DNA of 64,000 nucleotides, taken from NCBI RefSeq assembly GCF_024713945.1, contig NC_134682.1:4813001-4877000 (forward strand). Direction: 5' to 3'. The position numbers and the translations under genes were made by a program. The notes under the pieces are model-generated. The model did no database searches and was not told the origin of the DNA. It worked only from the letters and a program-made list of their open reading frames with translations. This document shows positions 1 through 8,238 of this stretch, piece after piece. The first letter of the stretch is position 1. Each line of letters starts with the position of its first letter. This stretch comes from Dermatophagoides farinae. Taxonomy: Eukaryota > Arthropoda > Arachnida > Sarcoptiformes > Pyroglyphidae.

Positions 1-3000
1 AAGTATTTGCTGAAATAATGTACATGAAATTTTGTTCCAAATCATCATCTTTCTGGCGTTCTACTTCGGTTCGATTGCAAGTATTATTATAGGATTCTTC
101 CCAATTCACACAACCACTTGTCAGTGCAATATTTGTGTTGATTTTCATTACTAACGATGGACCTTGTATAATAATAAGAATTATAAATGCCGTAAACGAT
201 ATCCATTTATGTCCACGAATATAGGCCATATATCGTAATAACAATATCCAACATGATCTTAATGAAAATCGGATACGATTCGTTGGAATACCATCGATAA
301 CTTTTTGTGTATCTTGCATTGATTCCATTTTGTTTTGTTGATTTGTAATTTCCATCGCTGTTGCATGTTGAGCTAGTTTTTCAACTATCGGATCTGTGTA
401 ATTCAAACAAGAATATCGTATAAGTTGTTCGATGGGAAATAAGTTGTTTTCTTCCATGATTCTCGTTTCATTGATATCGGGAATTTGCATGAGAAATTGT
501 CGTATATTTGACGGTGGACCCGAATAAACACACACACCACCTTTAGCGAGCACATAAAGTTGATCAAACATCATCAACACTTGAATGTTTGGTTGATGAA
601 TACTAGCAATGATGGTCAGATTATGTGCACGTGCAAGTTTAGCCAAATAAGCTACAACAACTTCAGCTGAATTACTATCCAATCCACTGGTTGGTTCATC
701 GATGCAAATCAAATTTGGCATTCTTTGGCTAGTTAATTCTAAACCCAATGCCAGTCGTTTACGTTCACCACCTGAACATTTTTGTACATAAGTATCAGCT
801 ATATCTGCGATGCCTAATTCATTCAACATATTTCTTGCAATACTTTCATGATTTAAATTGGATTCTTCGGATGAATTTTTCAATCTTGATGCATATATAA
901 GACTTTGTAGCGCTGTTAAACCAGGCATCAGATGTCCAGAAACTTCTTGCGTCAAATAACATACACGTGTTGGACAATATTTTGTGAGATAAAATTCACT
1001 TTCTTCACTCAATCGCGTTTTCATTTGTCCATTTAAAACTTTCAATAATGATGTCTTGCCAGCACCCGATGGACCCATCAATGCATTCAATGAACCGAAA
1101 CGAAAGTGACCATTTAAATTTTTCAGGATTAATTTCGATCCTTGATCAATATTATTGGCTGAACGTATTTCATATATTGATGAGGATGCAAACAGATTGA
1201 TTGAACGCCATGCAATCATAATTTTATTGCGTGTAAAATTTTCAAATTCAATTTCTTTACCAATTTTTGTACGATTTATTTGTGTTAAATCAATATTTTC
1301 CATTTTGGCATTTTCATCATAATCGATTGGCAATAATTCATCGTTTGTCGTGGTCTGAGGCAATTGTTTTTTGCCACGTTTATAATAGAAAGAAAATTTC
1401 CACCAAAGTATCAAAGCAGTAATCAATCGTATAATAAGAATATTCAAGAAAACTCCAGCAGATTCACTGAATATTTGATCTTGATCAATATCGTTATCGA
1501 CTAATATATATGAACGTTCCGTTTCAGGATCACAACGATGAAATGAATAAAATGAATATAAAAAACCATTAAAAATATAACGATTTTTAACAATTTTTAT
1601 CATTGTTTGCCATATAGGATCATTCAATTGTTCAGATTTGAAAATCATACCAATAAATATATGAAATGTTTGTGAAACAATCAATCCTAATATAACGGCA
1701 ATTTCCAAATAACGGGTGAATATGATGCCAAGTAGAAAACCACAACTTTGATTATATATGATGATTAACCATGTAAAATAAACATAATAACTAAATCGTT
1801 GCCAGTCAATGCGATATTGATCAATATATAAATGATTTACAGTGAAATAATTGAATATTGTAAGGAAAATGGCTACCAATGTAAATTCAAACAATCGTAC
1901 AAGATTGAATGATAGATAAAAGGCAACCAAACTATACCATTCTATTTATTGTTAAAATGTAAAATTAAATTAAATCACAGGCAAAAATACAATTAAACTT
2001 ACTATTTCGATGTTCATTAATGAAAATTTTCATCATCTGTATAAATGATATTGCACTGATTGATATTGTAGTAGCACCCGATATCCAAATGATATTTGTT
2101 AGAAATATACGATATTGGAATATATAATTCTCATTTGAATGTTTTTGCATACAAGTTATATTACCAATATCAGTGCCATCATCATTATTGTCGAATGAAT
2201 AACATGTGTTTGGTGTAACCATTAATGGATCATACATTGTTGATAAAACCGTAATAAACAATGCCAATGATATGAGTAATAGAAATAATTTTGTACGTTC
2301 CACTACGAATACGATGAGTAGTAAACGATTAAATTGTAACCATAGATCATACAATGAAAATTTTTTTTGATTTTTTGAAATAATTTGATCAATCGAATAA
2401 AATTCTTGTTGATTGATGATTTTTGTTGTGGAGTTTATCGTCGCTATTTGTTCCTGTAAACATGAATTGGCGAACCTTCTAACCAATTCATCACCGATTC
2501 CTAAATCAAATTTAAAAGTTATTAATTGTTCTATATGTAATTTCTTACATACCTTTACAGGCTATTTTCGAATATTCTTCAATCGTTGGTTTATCCGCCT
2601 CCAATTCTTGTTGGGTTGTTTGTTGCAATTTTCCTAGTAAATTTTTGGCGTCATCAAAATATATGCAAACACCGCCTTTTGCTAGTATATAAAGCTTATC
2701 GAAAAGATTCAAGATATCTGAACTTGGTACATGAATTGAAACCAAAATCGTTAAATGATCATTATGATCCACTAATCGTCGTAAACATTGCATAACCAAT
2801 AATGCTGAATTACTATCTAAACCGGTGGTTGGTTCATCCAGAAATAAGAAATCTGGCTGTTGTAAGGACATTAGTTCCTGTGCGATTGCAACACGTCTTT
2901 GTTCACCACCAGAACAATGTTCAAATTGTTTATTCAGAATAGTTTCGTCTAGTATCAATTCCTTCAATACCTGGCCAATGTGTTCATCCATTATTCGATT

Positions 3001-3414
3001 GTCATCACGATTATTTTTAAATCGAAATGCATATTCAAGTATCTGACGGATTGTCATTTTACCAATGATTGTTTCTTGGATATGTTGTTCAATTATACGA
3101 ATTACCGGTATCTTGTCATTTCGACGGATATAAATTTCGGAATCAGCTGAAACGCCAGATTGTAATGTTCCATTCAGACAATTTAATAAGGTTGTTTTAC
3201 CGGAACCACTGGGACCAAGAAATCCGTTTAAACTTTTTCTATATAAATGACCATTCAATCTTTGTAGAATAATTTTAGGTTTATTAAACCAACAATTGTA
3301 ACGGCTATTATTCACTTCAAAACGAAGATTTCGCCATAAAATCGATACATTTTTCATGGATTGTGAATGATCATCATCAAAATTTTCAATTTCAATTTCT
3401 TCTGTTGACGACAT
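1..3414 (-). CDS. Full-size ABCG-type transporter (NBD-TMD-NBD-TMD), 3' end beyond the window
   Basis: ATP-driven membrane exporter of the ABCG (White/PDR) family. Exons on the minus strand are 3414-2553, 2500-2003 and 1941 to beyond base 1. The introns are 52 and 61 bp with GTATGT and GTAAGT donors, and both joins keep frame. The first NBD has Walker A GPSGSGKT (residues 67-74), signature CSGGEQ (167-172) and Walker B LFLDEP. It is followed by a membrane domain (exon 2 to about base 1380). The same frame then runs without a stop into a second NBD with GPSGAGKT (near 1050), CSGGERKR (near 770) and ICIDEP (near 690), and into the start of a second membrane domain (about 250 to the edge). NBD-before-TMD order is the ABCG hallmark, but animal ABCGs are normally half-transporters. 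Substrate unknown. The start is the ATG at 3414; a retrotransposon lies about 320 bp upstream. Confidence 0.88.
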
Positions 3415-3736: not shown

Positions 3737-3929
3737 AGTATGCGGCCTCCACACACACACATACCACTCACACTACACAACACCACCACTACCACTAATG
3801 TCACACACACACAAAGGACACGACATGTATATAAGTCATGACACAAACACTGGACACACACTTGTTGTTTAACCTTTGATTAGTTGACCATTAAAAGTTC
3901 TTCTTCTCAACCGTGGTGCGAACGTTACT
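3737..3929 (+). repeat. Left LTR of the first retrotransposon
   Basis: A 193-bp direct repeat matching 8042-8234 with no difference seen. It is rich in CA repeats near its start and holds a TATATAAG-type TATA box near 3829, a plausible element promoter. Its ends AGT/ACT form a short inverted repeat. Confidence 0.93.
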
Positions 3930-3975
3930 GGTGTCAGGACCGATTCGAACTCAACGTGTAAATTCAACGATCAAT

Positions 3976-5085
3976 ATGGCAACATTGTCAACTACACGGC
4001 GAGAAATCTCTCGTTTACATAGTCGACTATTAATTCGACAATTGAATCCGGAAGCAGAAAAAGAAAAAATCTTAAAGCTTGCCGAAGATCTGGCCAATGA
4101 ACATGATCAAATATGGTCGTCAGATACAGAGCCGACAACTGAAGAAATCGACAAAATGTCGCAATATCAAGAAAAACTGCGAGAATTATTGCAGGAAGTG
4201 GACCCGAAACCAAAAATTTCCACTAATGCAACAGCAGAAATACCGAAGATCAAAATTAAATTTTCCGGTAAAAAGCAGGACTGGGCAAGTTTCCTCTCGC
4301 TGTTCGAGATTGCCACAAAAGAAGCAAGTCCACAAGAAAAATACCTAATCTTAACAAATGCTCTGCCTAATCATCTAAAACGTGATCATCCGACAACACC
4401 AAATGCTGAAAGTGTCGAAAATATAATCAACGCTCTGAATATCACATTTGGACCGATCGACAACAATCAAACGTTGGACATGGTAGAACGTTTTAATCCT
4501 GGTTCAAAAACACCATTATCATCAACAACAGGCAGATTGTGTGCTCTCTACCATCAAGCAGTCTCTCGGGATATCAACAAAGAATGTATAAACCGAGTGT
4601 TCAAGAAGAAAATTTTACAAATCATGCCGTTTAGCGTGCTGAACCAACTGCCGATGAACAACGACGTAGAGATGATAATCAACAAAATGGCTGAAATAGC
4701 CCATGTGCAAACTCAAGCCCTTGAGGCCAAACGAGGAAATCAACAACAACAACAACGCTCAGCTTATCGACCAACACAGCAGGGCAACAGAAGCAATAAA
4801 TGTGCATTATGTTCAAGATCGAACCACAACAGCATGGCATGTACCAGTGGCTCAGCAAGATCACGTAAGCAAATGGCTCAACGTCGTGGTTTATGCATGA
4901 AATGTTTACGACCCAATCACAAGGCCAACGAGTGTCGATCAAACACAAGTTGTGGCAAGTGCAAAGGACAACATGCCACCTGCCTATGTGACAAAGCAAC
5001 GATCAATACATCGGAGATGGCGCATGATGATTCAAACGACGAAGACCAATTCGACGATAACGACGACTTGGTAGCTTTAAACTAA
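3976..5085 (+). CDS. gag: gag of the first retrotransposon, BEL/Pao-like
   Basis: Structural protein that would form the element's particle. The open frame extends a little upstream into the LTR, but the first ATG inside the element is at 3976. The centre carries FSGKKQDWASF followed by a helical stretch, resembling the DUF1759 domain of BEL/Pao gag proteins. The C-terminal part has three zinc-knuckle-like clusters: CALC..H....C, CMKCLRPNHKANEC and CGKCKGQHATC. The last two closely follow the BEL/Pao pattern rather than the single CCHC of most Ty3 elements. The tail is acidic. The short glutamine run is likely a disordered linker. The assignment rests on remembered family patterns. Confidence 0.8.
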   Translation: MATLSTTRREISRLHSRLLIRQLNPEAEKEKILKLAEDLANEHDQIWSSDTEPTTEEIDKMSQYQEKLRELLQEVDPKPKISTNATAEIPKIKIKFSGKKQDWASFLSLFEIATKEASPQEKYLILTNALPNHLKRDHPTTPNAESVENIINALNITFGPIDNNQTLDMVERFNPGSKTPLSSTTGRLCALYHQAVSRDINKECINRVFKKKILQIMPFSVLNQLPMNNDVEMIINKMAEIAHVQTQALEAKRGNQQQQQRSAYRPTQQGNRSNKCALCSRSNHNSMACTSGSARSRKQMAQRRGLCMKCLRPNHKANECRSNTSCGKCKGQHATCLCDKATINTSEMAHDDSNDEDQFDDNDDLVALN

Positions 5086-8033
5086 ACCGCCCTCCCAGGC
5101 GTTTAATAGAATTCCCTTTGTTTATCAATAAAATTAAAACTTTGGCATTATATGATACGGGTGCAAATTTTACTGGCATGTCAAAAAGCAAAGCGGAAAA
5201 TCTAAAAATTAAGTGGCAGAAGAAAGCCGGAACTGCATATATGGCTGACGGAACAGCAGTTCAATGCCTCGGGAGGGCTAAAACATCTGTATCGATTGGT
5301 AGTGAAAATCACGAAACCACAATATTTGTGTTCAACAAACTTCATCATGACATCGTAGTTGGGACGGACACTATCGAAAAATTCCTGTTGGAACAACGAG
5401 TTGGTCTTAAAATCTTTCAACACAACAAACCGTTGACCAACCTGAAAAACGAAACAAGAAAACGTCTGACAATCAACAACTGTGCCGATCAAATCAAGCG
5501 ACAATATAACGACGTATTCACTGGTTGTGGAAGAACAGAAAGAATAGTCCACACCATCGACGTTTCATCAAATCGATTAATACGTCATAAAACACAAAAT
5601 ATACCAGTACACTGGAGAGAAGATATTGCCAATCATATCAACGAATTACAACAACTTGGCATTATCGAAGAATCAAAAAGTGAATATCGATCTCGCATAG
5701 TACCGATCAAGAAAAAAGACGGTTCGGTTCGTCTAGCCATCGACTATCGCGACCTAAACAAAATTTCAAACAACGATGCTTTCCCGATGCCAAAGATAAA
5801 AGACATCCTGTTCAAATTATCCAAGGCGAAAATCTTTTCAAAAATGGATCTAAAACGCGGATATTATCAAATACCAATGGAAGAAAATTCCAAGAAATAT
5901 ACCGCTTTCGCCTTCAACAACAAATTGTATCAATTCAAGATGATGCCGTTTGGTCTAGTGGCAGCACCACAAACCTTTCAACGACTAATGGAATCTATTC
6001 TGGGTCATCTTGATTTTGTAGAGTGCTACCTCGACGACGTAATAATATTCAGTGAAAACGAACAAAAACATCGACAACATCTCGATCAAATATTCAACAT
6101 CCTCAGAGAAGAAAATCTCAAATTGAATGAAGAAAAGTGCCAATTCTACATGAAAGAAATCGATTACCTTGGGTTCTCCATCAAAAAAGGACATCGAACA
6201 ATATTGGCTTCAAATAAACAAAAATTATTACAATTTCCTCGACCATCCAATCAGAATGAAGCCAAAACATTCATCGGTTTGGCCGGCTATTACCGTGATC
6301 TGATAAAGGACTTCGCAAAAATGTGCAAGCCGTTATATTATTGCAGTAACCAGAAAAAGTTCAGATGGTTACACGAGCAAGAAGAAGCCTTCAATCAGCT
6401 AAAAGAAGTGATCAAGAAAAATCCGACGGTCATGATACCGGATATGTCACTAAAATTTACCGTAACAACGGATGCCTCTGATAGCGCCATGGGAGCGGTA
6501 CTATCACAAACAATCAACAATGTTAAAACGCCAGTTGATTTCTTTTCAAGAGGCTTCAACGATACACAGAAAAGATATTCAACCTATGAGAAAGAAGCGA
6601 CTGCCTTAATTCAAGCATTGAAGTACTGGCAATATCTATTGATTGGAAAACCGTTCATTCTGGAAACAGACCACAAACCATTGAAATGGCTGCTGTCCAA
6701 GAAAGATTGTAACGGGAAATTGGGCAGAATGGTGTTGAAACTGGCGGACTTCCAAATCGAAAACATCGAACACATCAAAGGAACGGAAAACGTCCTTGCA
6801 GATACGCTAAGTAGATTGCAAGTGAACTGTATTGCGGGATCACAGGACGATAGTCAACCGGATGACGTGATCAACAGAGATCGCAATAATTTTCGGTACC
6901 AAAATGGCAGATGGTATTTCGTCGACAGCTCGTCAGGTACAGAATCGTTACGAATATACATCAGAAACGAAAACGAACGTGAACAGATACTAAAGACGGT
7001 TCACGATAACGGACATTTTGGGGTATTCAAATGTATGGAAGAAATCAGAAAACGATTTTGGTGGCCCGGCTGGAAAAGGCAAGTCAAACATATTGTATCA
7101 ACCTGTCCACGCTGCGAGCAATACAAGGAAAATACCGAAAGGACTCGATTGCCGATGATTACGAGTCAAGCGGAACCAAATAACTGGAGAAGATTGGGAA
7201 TCGACATCTGTGGCCCGTTGCAGACTACCAACGACGGAAATAAATACATCCTGGTTTTACAAGACTACGCTTCAAAATTCGTCGTAGCAAAACCAGTGGC
7301 CACCATCTCATCAACAGTCGTTATTGAATGGTTACGTCAGGTATTCCAAGATTTCGGATGGCCCCAGATCATACTTCATGACTGTGGTGCCCAGTTCCAG
7401 AGCGAACAATTCAAAAGATTCGCATCCGAAAATCGCATCGAACTGGAAGAAGCAACAGTGGCTCATCATCAAACTAATGGAATGGTGGAACGTATTATCC
7501 GGACAATTGAAACAATTATCCGAGTATCAGCTAACGATCATAATAATTGGGACCGTACGCTACCAGAAGCTATCGCAGCCTACAATGGATCAAGACATTA
7601 TTCGACATCCATGTCACCATTCAAGGCAATGTACGGCCGAGACATGACTACTCAACTGGACCGAAGATATGGAATCGTACACAACACCGAAGATATGGGA
7701 ATCCTGAGAGAACGACGTCTGGCTCGACATGGACAAGCCCAACGGCACCAAAAAGAACAATACGACAGGAAAACTAAAGTGGAGCCGATTCGAGTTGGGG
7801 ACAGAGTGCTATGGCATTTGGTCGAAGCAACTATGGGGAGCTCGAAAAAGTTCAACCGACGTTGGAAAGGCCCATTTATAGCAGCCGAAATGAATTACCC
7901 GAACATCAAGATCGAGGACAGGAATGGAAACTTCCGTTGGATCCACCACAACCACATCAAAAAATCATTGGCTGCAAACACCGATTTAGACATAATTAGA
8001 AACCGCGGCCGACCCCGGACACTTCCGTCTTGA
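5061..8033 (+). CDS. pol: pol of the first retrotransposon (PR-RT-RH-IN), Ty3-like
   Basis: Polyprotein that copies and inserts the element. Domains in order: aspartic protease (ALYDTGANFTGMS), reverse transcriptase with IDYRDLN and the active-site motif YLDDV, RNase H (TTDASDSAMGAVL and the DTLSR end), and integrase with its HHCC zinc region (H..H...CPRCEQ) followed by the D,D,E core and a basic tail. This is Ty3/Gypsy order and sequence style. The frame lies one base back from gag with a short overlap near 5061-5085. Many Ty3 elements express such an overlap by programmed -1 ribosomal frameshifting, and a plausible slippery run sits in the overlap. There is no independent ATG near the start. 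Confidence 0.9.
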   Translation, partial: RRLGSFKLNRPPRRLIEFPLFINKIKTLALYDTGANFTGMSKSKAENLKIKWQKKAGTAYMADGTAVQCLGRAKTSVSIGSENHETTIFVFNKLHHDIVVGTDTIEKFLLEQRVGLKIFQHNKPLTNLKNETRKRLTINNCADQIKRQYNDVFTGCGRTERIVHTIDVSSNRLIRHKTQNIPVHWREDIANHINELQQLGIIEESKSEYRSRIVPIKKKDGSVRLAIDYRDLNKISNNDAFPMPKIKDILFKLSKAKIFSKMDLKRGYYQIPMEENSKKYTAFAFNNKLYQFKMMPFGLVAAPQTFQRLMESILGHLDFVECYLDDVIIFSENEQKHRQHLDQIFNILREENLKLNEEKCQFYMKEIDYLGFSIKKGHRTILASNKQKLLQFPRPSNQNEAKTFIGLAGYYRDLIKDFAKMCKPLYYCSNQKKFRWLHEQEEAFNQLKEVIKKNPTVMIPDMSLKFTVTTDASDSAMGAVLSQTINNVKTPVDFFSRGFNDTQKRYSTYEKEATALIQALKYWQYLLIGKPFILETDHKPLKWLLSKKDCNGKLGRMVLKLADFQIENIEHIKGTENVLADTLSRLQVNCIAGSQDDSQPDDVINRDRNNFRYQNGRWYFVDSSSGTESLRIYIRNENEREQILKTVHDNGHFGVFKCMEEIRKRFWWPGWKRQVKHIVSTCPRCEQYKENTERTRLPMITSQAEPNNWRRLGIDICGPLQTTNDGNKYILVLQDYASKFVVAKPVATISSTVVIEWLRQVFQDFGWPQIILHDCGAQFQSEQFKRFASENRIELEEATVAHHQTNGMVERIIRTIETIIRVSANDHNNWDRTLPEAIAAYNGSRHYSTSMSPFKAMYGRDMTTQLDRRYGIVHNTEDMGILRERRLARHGQAQRHQKEQYDRKTKVEPIRVGDRVLWHLVEATMGSSKKFNRRWKGPFIAAEMNYPNIKIEDRNGNFRWIHHNHIKKSLAANTDLDIIRNRGRPRTLPS

Positions 8034-8041
8034 GGGGGAGG

Positions 8042-8234
8042 AGTATGCGGCCTCCACACACACACATACCACTCACACTACACAACACCACCACTACCAC
8101 TAATGTCACACACACACAAAGGACACGACATGTATATAAGTCATGACACAAACACTGGACACACACTTGTTGTTTAACCTTTGATTAGTTGACCATTAAA
8201 AGTTCTTCTTCTCAACCGTGGTGCGAACGTTACT
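8042..8234 (+). repeat. Right LTR of the first retrotransposon
   Basis: Partner of the repeat at 3737-3929, with the same length and no difference noticed by eye. It follows the purine-rich GAGGGGGAGG polypurine tract and is followed by the GTAT target duplication. Confidence 0.93.
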
Positions 8235-8238
8235 GTAT

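What the first reader, a model, noticed from the sequence alone, without database searches (positions are those of the whole stretch)
1..3414. Full-size ABCG transporter in a mite
Animal ABCG proteins are known as half-transporters; full-size ABCGs (PDR type) are a plant/fungal/protist feature. Here one gene carries NBD1-TMD1-NBD2 and the start of TMD2, with complete Walker A, signature and Walker B in both NBDs. I read exon 3 from 1941 down to about base 1 without a stop, and the stretch between the last helix of TMD1 (about 1440-1380) and NBD2 (about 1300) is a short linker with no splice signal. The gene could be a tandem fusion of two half-transporters, which would fix the dimer partner.
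Basis: partly seen in the sequence, partly recalled or inferred. Interest (0 to 1): 0.75.

Follow-up and report, generated by a model that had tools for sequence, protein, structure and literature searches.

The report
Full-size ABCG transporters in dust mites
A house dust mite gene encodes, in one protein chain, a complete two-part membrane pump of a type that animals are said to make only as separate halves; it belongs to a large mite gene family that seems to have arisen when two copies of an animal half-pump gene fused.

Summary
Confirmed, and larger than reported. The window gene (minus strand; exons 3414-2553, 2500-2003, 1941 to -80, -152 to -801; negative numbers lie in the flank) encodes 1343 aa: NBD1-TMD1-NBD2-TMD2, both ATP sites canonical. 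The linker lies inside one 2,022-nt exon. A database protein from another contig has the same length, 14 differences. The species is Dermatophagoides farinae by sequence match. The genome holds at least 29 loci of this kind; in 29 of 29 the end of TMD1 and NBD2 share one open frame. Full-size relatives occur in D. pteronyssinus, Sarcoptes and the oribatid Oppia. Grouping with fungal/oomycete full-size ABCGs is rejected; the nearest relatives are half-transporters of Oppia, then spider mites and a springtail. An intron sits at the same site and phase in both halves, as expected if one half-transporter gene was duplicated and fused. A paralogue's predicted structure matches yeast Pdr5 and Candida Cdr1 over the whole chain. 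Best reading: an animal-made, convergent counterpart of PDR transporters. Substrate, expression and number of fusions are not shown. Two papers seen in passages say animals lack full-size ABCGs; nine searches of an open-access library found none describing this family.

The parts
2553..3414 (-). Exon 1: start codon at 3414, NBD1 (residues about 20-260), beginning of the NBD1-TMD1 connection
3193..3216 (-). Walker A of NBD1 (GPSGSGKT, residues 67-74)
2902..2916 (-). Signature of NBD1 (CSGGE, residues 167-171)
2830..2850 (-). Walker B of NBD1 (FLFLDEP, residues 189-195)
2501..2552 (-). Intron 1, 52 nt, GT-AG, phase 1; the second half of this gene has no intron at the matching place
2003..2500 (-). 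Exon 2: first part of TMD1
1942..2002 (-). Intron 2, 61 nt, GT-AG, phase 1, at NEHRN|(K)WYS; same alignment column and phase as intron 3, which lies outside the window
1..1941 (-). Exon 3, window part (the exon runs on to -80): end of TMD1, linker, NBD2, start of TMD2, one uninterrupted frame
1235..1384 (-). Linker between TMD1 and NBD2 (residues about 640-689), no intron
482..1234 (-). NBD2 (residues about 690-940)
1052..1075 (-). Walker A of NBD2 (GPSGAGKT, residues 743-750)
764..778 (-). Signature of NBD2 (CSGGE, residues 842-846)
692..712 (-). Walker B of NBD2 (LICIDEP, residues 864-870)
1..202 (-). Start of TMD2 from its first hydrophobic segment (residues 1034-1052); the rest lies outside the window (exon 3 to -80; intron 3 from -81 to -151; exon 4 from -152 to -801; G000:C6 below 4813001, locus L009)

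Best explanation
The gene encodes a single-chain, full-size ABCG exporter of a sarcoptiform-mite family that arose when a half-transporter gene of the animal ABCG lineage was duplicated in tandem and the two copies fused. NBD1-TMD1 and NBD2-TMD2 of one chain fold onto each other as a pseudo-dimer; ATP binds at two composite sites, each made of the Walker motifs of one NBD and the signature of the other, and drives outward movement of a lipophilic substrate between the two TMDs. Shown: gene structure, domain order, intact motifs, family and phylogeny. Inferred: intramolecular pairing (from a predicted structure and from where paralogues degenerate), export at the plasma membrane, and lipophilic substrates (from ABCG kin, general knowledge). 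The substrate is not known.
For: One open exon carries TMD1 end, linker and NBD2; a database protein from another contig has the same length. 29 of 29 N-half hits entered pair with a C-half hit downstream on the same strand, and in 29 of 29 C-hit loci (L040-L068, the window gene included) TMD1-type and NBD2-type matches share one open frame. In two loci a single frame of 1190 or 1163 codons holds both NBDs (L012, L019). Full-size relatives in D. pteronyssinus, Sarcoptes and Oppia. Tree of 83 halves: 17 astigmatan N-halves are one group and 17 C-halves another, inside an animal half-ABCG lineage (39-row bootstrap tree); grouping with fungal, oomycete and jgi119 rows rejected, log-likelihood 163.8 lower, p-AU 5e-76. 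Introns 2 and 3 in the same column (900) and phase 1. Best PDB sequence match human ABCG1, 144.8 bits, before Cdr1 116.7 and Pdr5 109.9; half-ABCG model TIGR00955 344.9 bits, PDR model TIGR00956 214.3. Predicted fold of a D. farinae paralogue: Pdr5 TMq 0.73, 1060 residues at 4.3 A. Among 24 full-size proteins, substitutions at the motifs scored fall on the site made of NBD1 Walker A/Q-loop and NBD2 signature.
Against: No transcript was examined. The modelled protein is a 1180-aa paralogue with a shortened linker, not the window protein. The two halves are only 26.6% identical (163 of 612), so the duplication is old, and an intron at that site could also be ancestral to half-ABCGs (no gene structures of outgroups were available). 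One fusion shared by astigmatans and oribatids is not rejected (p-AU 0.487) but not shown: Oppia N-halves do not group firmly with astigmatan N-halves, and the place of Oppia half P0230 is unresolved. Control against my use: the fungal YOL075C-like P0068 also prefers TIGR00955 (794.6) to TIGR00956 (472.0) and a human half-ABCG (ABCG2) to Cdr1, so those two results speak against PDR kinship only; kinship to P0068-like fungal proteins is judged by the trees.
Confidence: 0.85

Rival explanations
1. Merged gene model: two neighbouring half-transporter genes read as one.
For: Such merging seems to occur in insect records: in the tree one set of related halves is the N-half in Culicoides, Drosophila elegans and Chelonus models but the C-half in Condylostylus, Bactrocera and Eurosta models, as if neighbours had been merged in different ways. 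The genes of those insects were not checked.
Against: In the mite the junction lies inside one exon, not at a splice site; TMD1 end and NBD2 share one open frame in 29 of 29 loci; order is N then C in 29 of 29; the stretch leading into NBD2 is similar across most of the astigmatan rows printed.
Confidence: 0.04
2. Horizontal transfer of a fungal (YOL075C-like or PDR) or oomycete full-size ABCG into mites.
For: After the mite rows the named full-size hits are mostly fungal; P0017 is named YOL075C-like (its organism name is cut off after the letter D in the listing); the predicted fold matches Pdr5 over the chain; a fungal control behaves like the mite protein.
Against: Grouping full-size mite halves with the 8 fungal, oomycete and jgi119 rows is rejected; mite and springtail half-transporters are nearer; ABCG1 beats Cdr1/Pdr5 by sequence. 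The trees held no Pdr5 or Cdr1 row, so distance from true PDR proteins rests.
Confidence: 0.03
3. Repeated independent fusions of half-transporters within sarcoptiform mites rather than one ancestral fusion.
For: Oppia rows do not form clean N and C groups with astigmatan rows; in 200 bootstrap trees the N-halves are one group in 18% and the C-halves in 58%; both halves of Oppia P0045 group together with support 84, but P0045_N is flagged as a long branch.
Against: Holding all 16 N-halves together costs 0.56 log-likelihood units, p-AU 0.487; astigmatan N and C halves each form one fully supported group. The same test for the C-halves did not finish.
Confidence: 0.3

Closest known systems
Animal half-size ABCG transporters (human ABCG1; spider-mite ABCGs such as T. 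urticae P0198; Oppia P0170)
   Same: NBD before TMD, sequence kinship of each half, C-SGG signature as in the spider-mite and Oppia halves examined
   Different: Those rows are single NBD-TMD units of about 650-810 aa; here two units are joined in one chain
Fungal/plant PDR full-size ABCG (Pdr5, Cdr1)
   Same: Two NBD-TMD units in one chain; predicted whole-chain fold of a paralogue matches Pdr5/Cdr1; some mite paralogues have altered motifs on the NBD1-Walker/NBD2-signature site, which recalls the degenerate site of Pdr5 (the Pdr5 comparison is from memory)
   Different: PDR model scores far below its cut-off and below the half-ABCG model; the window gene has both ATP sites canonical
Fungal YOL075C-like full-size ABCG (P0068; family name by similarity and memory)
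   Same: Full-size, similar length, best matched by TIGR00955 too
   Different: Separate branch, grouping rejected. P0068 has LSGGE/ISGGE signatures, though several other fungal rows have CSGGE in NBD1, so the signature alone does not separate them

Membership tests
ABC subfamily G (reverse NBD-TMD order) | NBD on the N-terminal side of an ABC2-type TMD | tested here: met
   Pfam PF00005 two stretches, PF01061 two stretches in the near-identical P0001; hydrophobic segments after each NBD
ABC subfamily G (reverse NBD-TMD order) | Intact Walker A, Q-loop, signature, Walker B, H-loop in each NBD | tested here: met
   row P0001; for the window sequence
Full-size ABCG (architecture class) | Two NBD-TMD units in one polypeptide | tested here: met
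   gene; database protein; model of a paralogue; the polypeptide itself was not observed
PDR family (TIGR00956) | Score above the curated cut-off of 1959 bits | tested here: not met
   P0001 214.3 bits
PDR family (TIGR00956) | Closer kinship to fungal/plant PDR than to half-ABCGs | tested here: not met
   ABCG1 above Cdr1/Pdr5, TIGR00955 above TIGR00956; no PDR row was in the trees
PDR family (TIGR00956) | Degenerate first ATP site (definition recalled) | tested here: not met
   both sites canonical in P0001; altered only in some paralogues
Half-size ABCG, white/EPP model TIGR00955 | Score above the curated cut-off of 736.35 bits | tested here: not met
   344.9 bits, though it is the top model of 171 reported for P0001 (25 shown). 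The spider-mite half P0198 (324.2) and Oppia half P0170 (286.8) also miss it
Half-size ABCG, white/EPP model TIGR00955 | One NBD-TMD unit per chain | tested here: not met

The most novel reading that the evidence does not exclude
Sarcoptiform mites independently re-invented the PDR architecture by one ancestral fusion of an animal half-ABCG, then expanded it to about thirty genes per genome as a main lipid or xenobiotic efflux system, with some paralogues turning one ATP site degenerate, in parallel with fungal PDR pumps.
Probability: 0.4. Interest if true: 0.75.

Novelty: new variant of a known kind. Interest (0 to 1): 0.62.

Why it matters
Published surveys state that animal ABCGs exist only as half-transporters. 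A fused animal family present in dust mites, scabies mites and an oribatid gives an independent evolutionary replicate of PDR pumps, lets one ask whether fusion and ATP-site asymmetry evolve together, and names at least 29 candidate loci for lipid or xenobiotic transport in a mite of medical interest.

Full report
WHAT IS THERE. The window is G000:C6:4813001-4877000 of a 62.4-Mb, 22-contig genome. Exon 1 is 3414-2553, exon 2 2500-2003, exon 3 1941 to -80, exon 4 -152 to -801 with a TAA stop; introns are 52, 61 and 71 nt, GT-AG, all phase 1 (flank read from L009). The coding sequence of 4032 nt gives 1343 aa, 155.5 kDa. Exon 3 alone is 2022 nt and carries the end of TMD1, the linker, NBD2 and the first two hydrophobic segments of TMD2; exon 4 carries the rest. 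At its base composition the chance of 673 open codons is about 1e-24. Database protein P0001, which the tool marks as the window's own, has the same length and differs at 14 residues; it is listed on a contig of another length, so probably another assembly.

SPECIES. D. farinae protein P0006 (LOC124495078) matches the genome at 98-100% in four pieces at C3:5.6396-5.6438 Mb, and its listed contig length, 7,183,292, is that of C3. The window is Dermatophagoides farinae.

NOT ONE GENE BUT A FAMILY. Searching the genome with each half and pairing hits gives 29 loci, the window gene included. Of the 31 N-type rows that head the 80, two were other exons of the window gene and were dropped; the other 29 all have a C-half hit downstream on the same strand, 136-1608 bp away. 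From the 78 rows I entered the first 30 less the window gene's last exon, plus C3:813275 and C4:2075025, and C3:815667; these three had no N partner. The 29 are loci, not proven intact genes, and the tool calls its counts lower bounds. Six lie in one array at C3:5.614-5.644 Mb. Reading the DNA of the 29 C-hit loci, a TMD1-type match is followed by an NBD2-type match in one open frame in 29 of 29. In 23 of 29 that frame's TMD1 match begins at model column 424-428, and in 27 of 29 the NBD2 match ends at column 427-436; this is where introns 2 and 3 of the window gene fall, so the paired introns look old in the family, although splice sites were read in the window gene only. In two loci, C3:3.475 and C9:0.8245 Mb, the first break is absent and one frame of 1190 or 1163 codons holds both NBDs (L012, L019).

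WHO HAS IT. Proteins of about 1200-1450 aa with two halves were returned for D. farinae, D. pteronyssinus, Sarcoptes scabiei and the oribatid Oppia nitens, and shorter or partial ones for Euroglyphus, Medioppia and Oppiella (each lists the best 120 only). Half-size relatives returned are Oppia P0065, P0170, P0177 and P0230, spider mites P0198, P0208 and P0213, and the springtail P0244.

ORIGIN. I cut 83 halves from 47 proteins (the window protein and 46 of the 250 retrieved, chosen by hand). Trees (83 rows; 63 rows after dropping 20 long, doubtful or redundant rows; 39 rows with bootstrap) place both halves of the full-size mite proteins with Oppia halves, then spider-mite and springtail halves, then other animal ABCGs, away from fungal and oomycete full-size ABCGs. 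Forcing the full-size mite rows together with 8 fungal, oomycete and jgi119 rows costs 163.8 log units (p-AU 5e-76). Astigmatan N-halves are one group and C-halves another. Whether Oppia shares the same fusion is open: holding the N-halves together is not rejected (p-AU 0.487), the C-half test did not finish, and Oppia rows are loosely placed. Introns 2 and 3 fall in the same column of the half-alignment (NEHRN|xWYS) and the same phase, which fits duplication of one intron-bearing half gene; intron 1 has no partner in the second half. The halves are 26.6% identical (163 of 612).

CONTROLS. Long ABCG models also occur in insects, a tick, a planthopper and a fish. In the tree related insect halves are the first half in some species and the second in others, as if neighbours had been merged in different ways. 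In the mite the order is constant and the junction is inside an exon. A fungal full-size control, P0068, resembles the mite protein in preferring TIGR00955 and a human half-ABCG; those two tests therefore speak against PDR kinship but cannot by themselves exclude a P0068-like source, which the trees do.

FUNCTION. The window gene keeps Walker A lysine, Q-loop, C-SGG signature, Walker B glutamate and H-loop histidine in both NBDs; the glutamine that follows the histidine in NBD2 (IHQP) is valine in NBD1. Among 24 full-size proteins aligned, NBD2 Walker A and NBD1 SGG are intact in 24 of 24; the NBD2 signature is altered in 5 of 24 (P0017, P0018, P0023, P0039, P0045), the NBD1 Q-loop glutamine is replaced in 3 of 24 (P0018, P0023, P0045), and the NBD1 Walker lysine is replaced in P0045 and lies in a missing stretch in P0002; P0023 has a gap at the NBD1 H-loop. 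These substitutions hit one composite site, as expected if NBD1 and NBD2 of a chain pair with each other; the rows are related, so this is not a count of independent events. AlphaFold of the D. farinae paralogue P0012 (pLDDT 79.1, pTM 0.69) gives Foldseek matches first to Pdr5 and Cdr1 over the whole chain, then to half-ABCG chains; VIA-align gives 1043-1060 residues at 4.3-4.9 A for the Pdr5/Cdr1 rows, with a half-ABCG (ABCG16) at the top of its list. I read it as a covalent pseudo-dimeric ABCG exporter. Substrate is unknown; export of lipophilic compounds is inferred from ABCG kin. In Psoroptes ovis, another mite, two genes named ABC transporter G family member 20 stand with positive fold changes in a table on acaricide-exposed resistant mites (passage of PMC12364353); whether they are full-size is not known.

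AGAINST WHAT IS KNOWN. PMC3724490 (passage) states that for metazoans only half-size ABCGs had been reported, full-size ones being in plants and fungi; [quoted passage not shown] PMC8290562 (passage) reports a median of 3.5 ABCG genes in arachnids, with T. urticae an outlier at 23; 29 or more full-size loci here exceed both. The proteins are in public databases under names such as ABC transporter G family member, so the sequences are not new; their description as an animal full-size family was not found in nine searches. Hence: new variant of a known kind.

LIMITS. No transcript, protein or assay evidence; no DNA of other mites; no Pdr5 or Cdr1 row in the trees; full-size genes of Prostigmata could have been missed by the word-based, capped protein searches.

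Noticed in passing
window 3737-8235, + strand: LTR retrotransposon with gag-like and pol-like frames and two identical 194-bp direct repeats (3737-3930, 8042-8235), so probably a recent insertion; its near end lies about 320 bp upstream of the ABCG start codon, in the likely promoter. Observed only.
   Followed up: partly
G000:C3:813275-817112 and G000:C4:2075025-2076698: C-half-like ABCG hits without an N-half partner: possibly true half-transporters or remnants.
   Followed up: no
protein P0045 (Oppia nitens), and P0059 and P0060 (Medioppia): NBD1 Walker A reads GPSGAGLT (lysine replaced) together with an altered NBD2 signature (CSSGQ or CSFGQ), i.e. one composite ATP site degenerate.
   Followed up: partly
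proteins P0233-P0240 and P0248: ABCG models over 1200 aa in insects, a tick and a planthopper; the insect ones in the tree have inconsistent halves and look like merged neighbours; they deserve a check against transcripts.
   Followed up: partly
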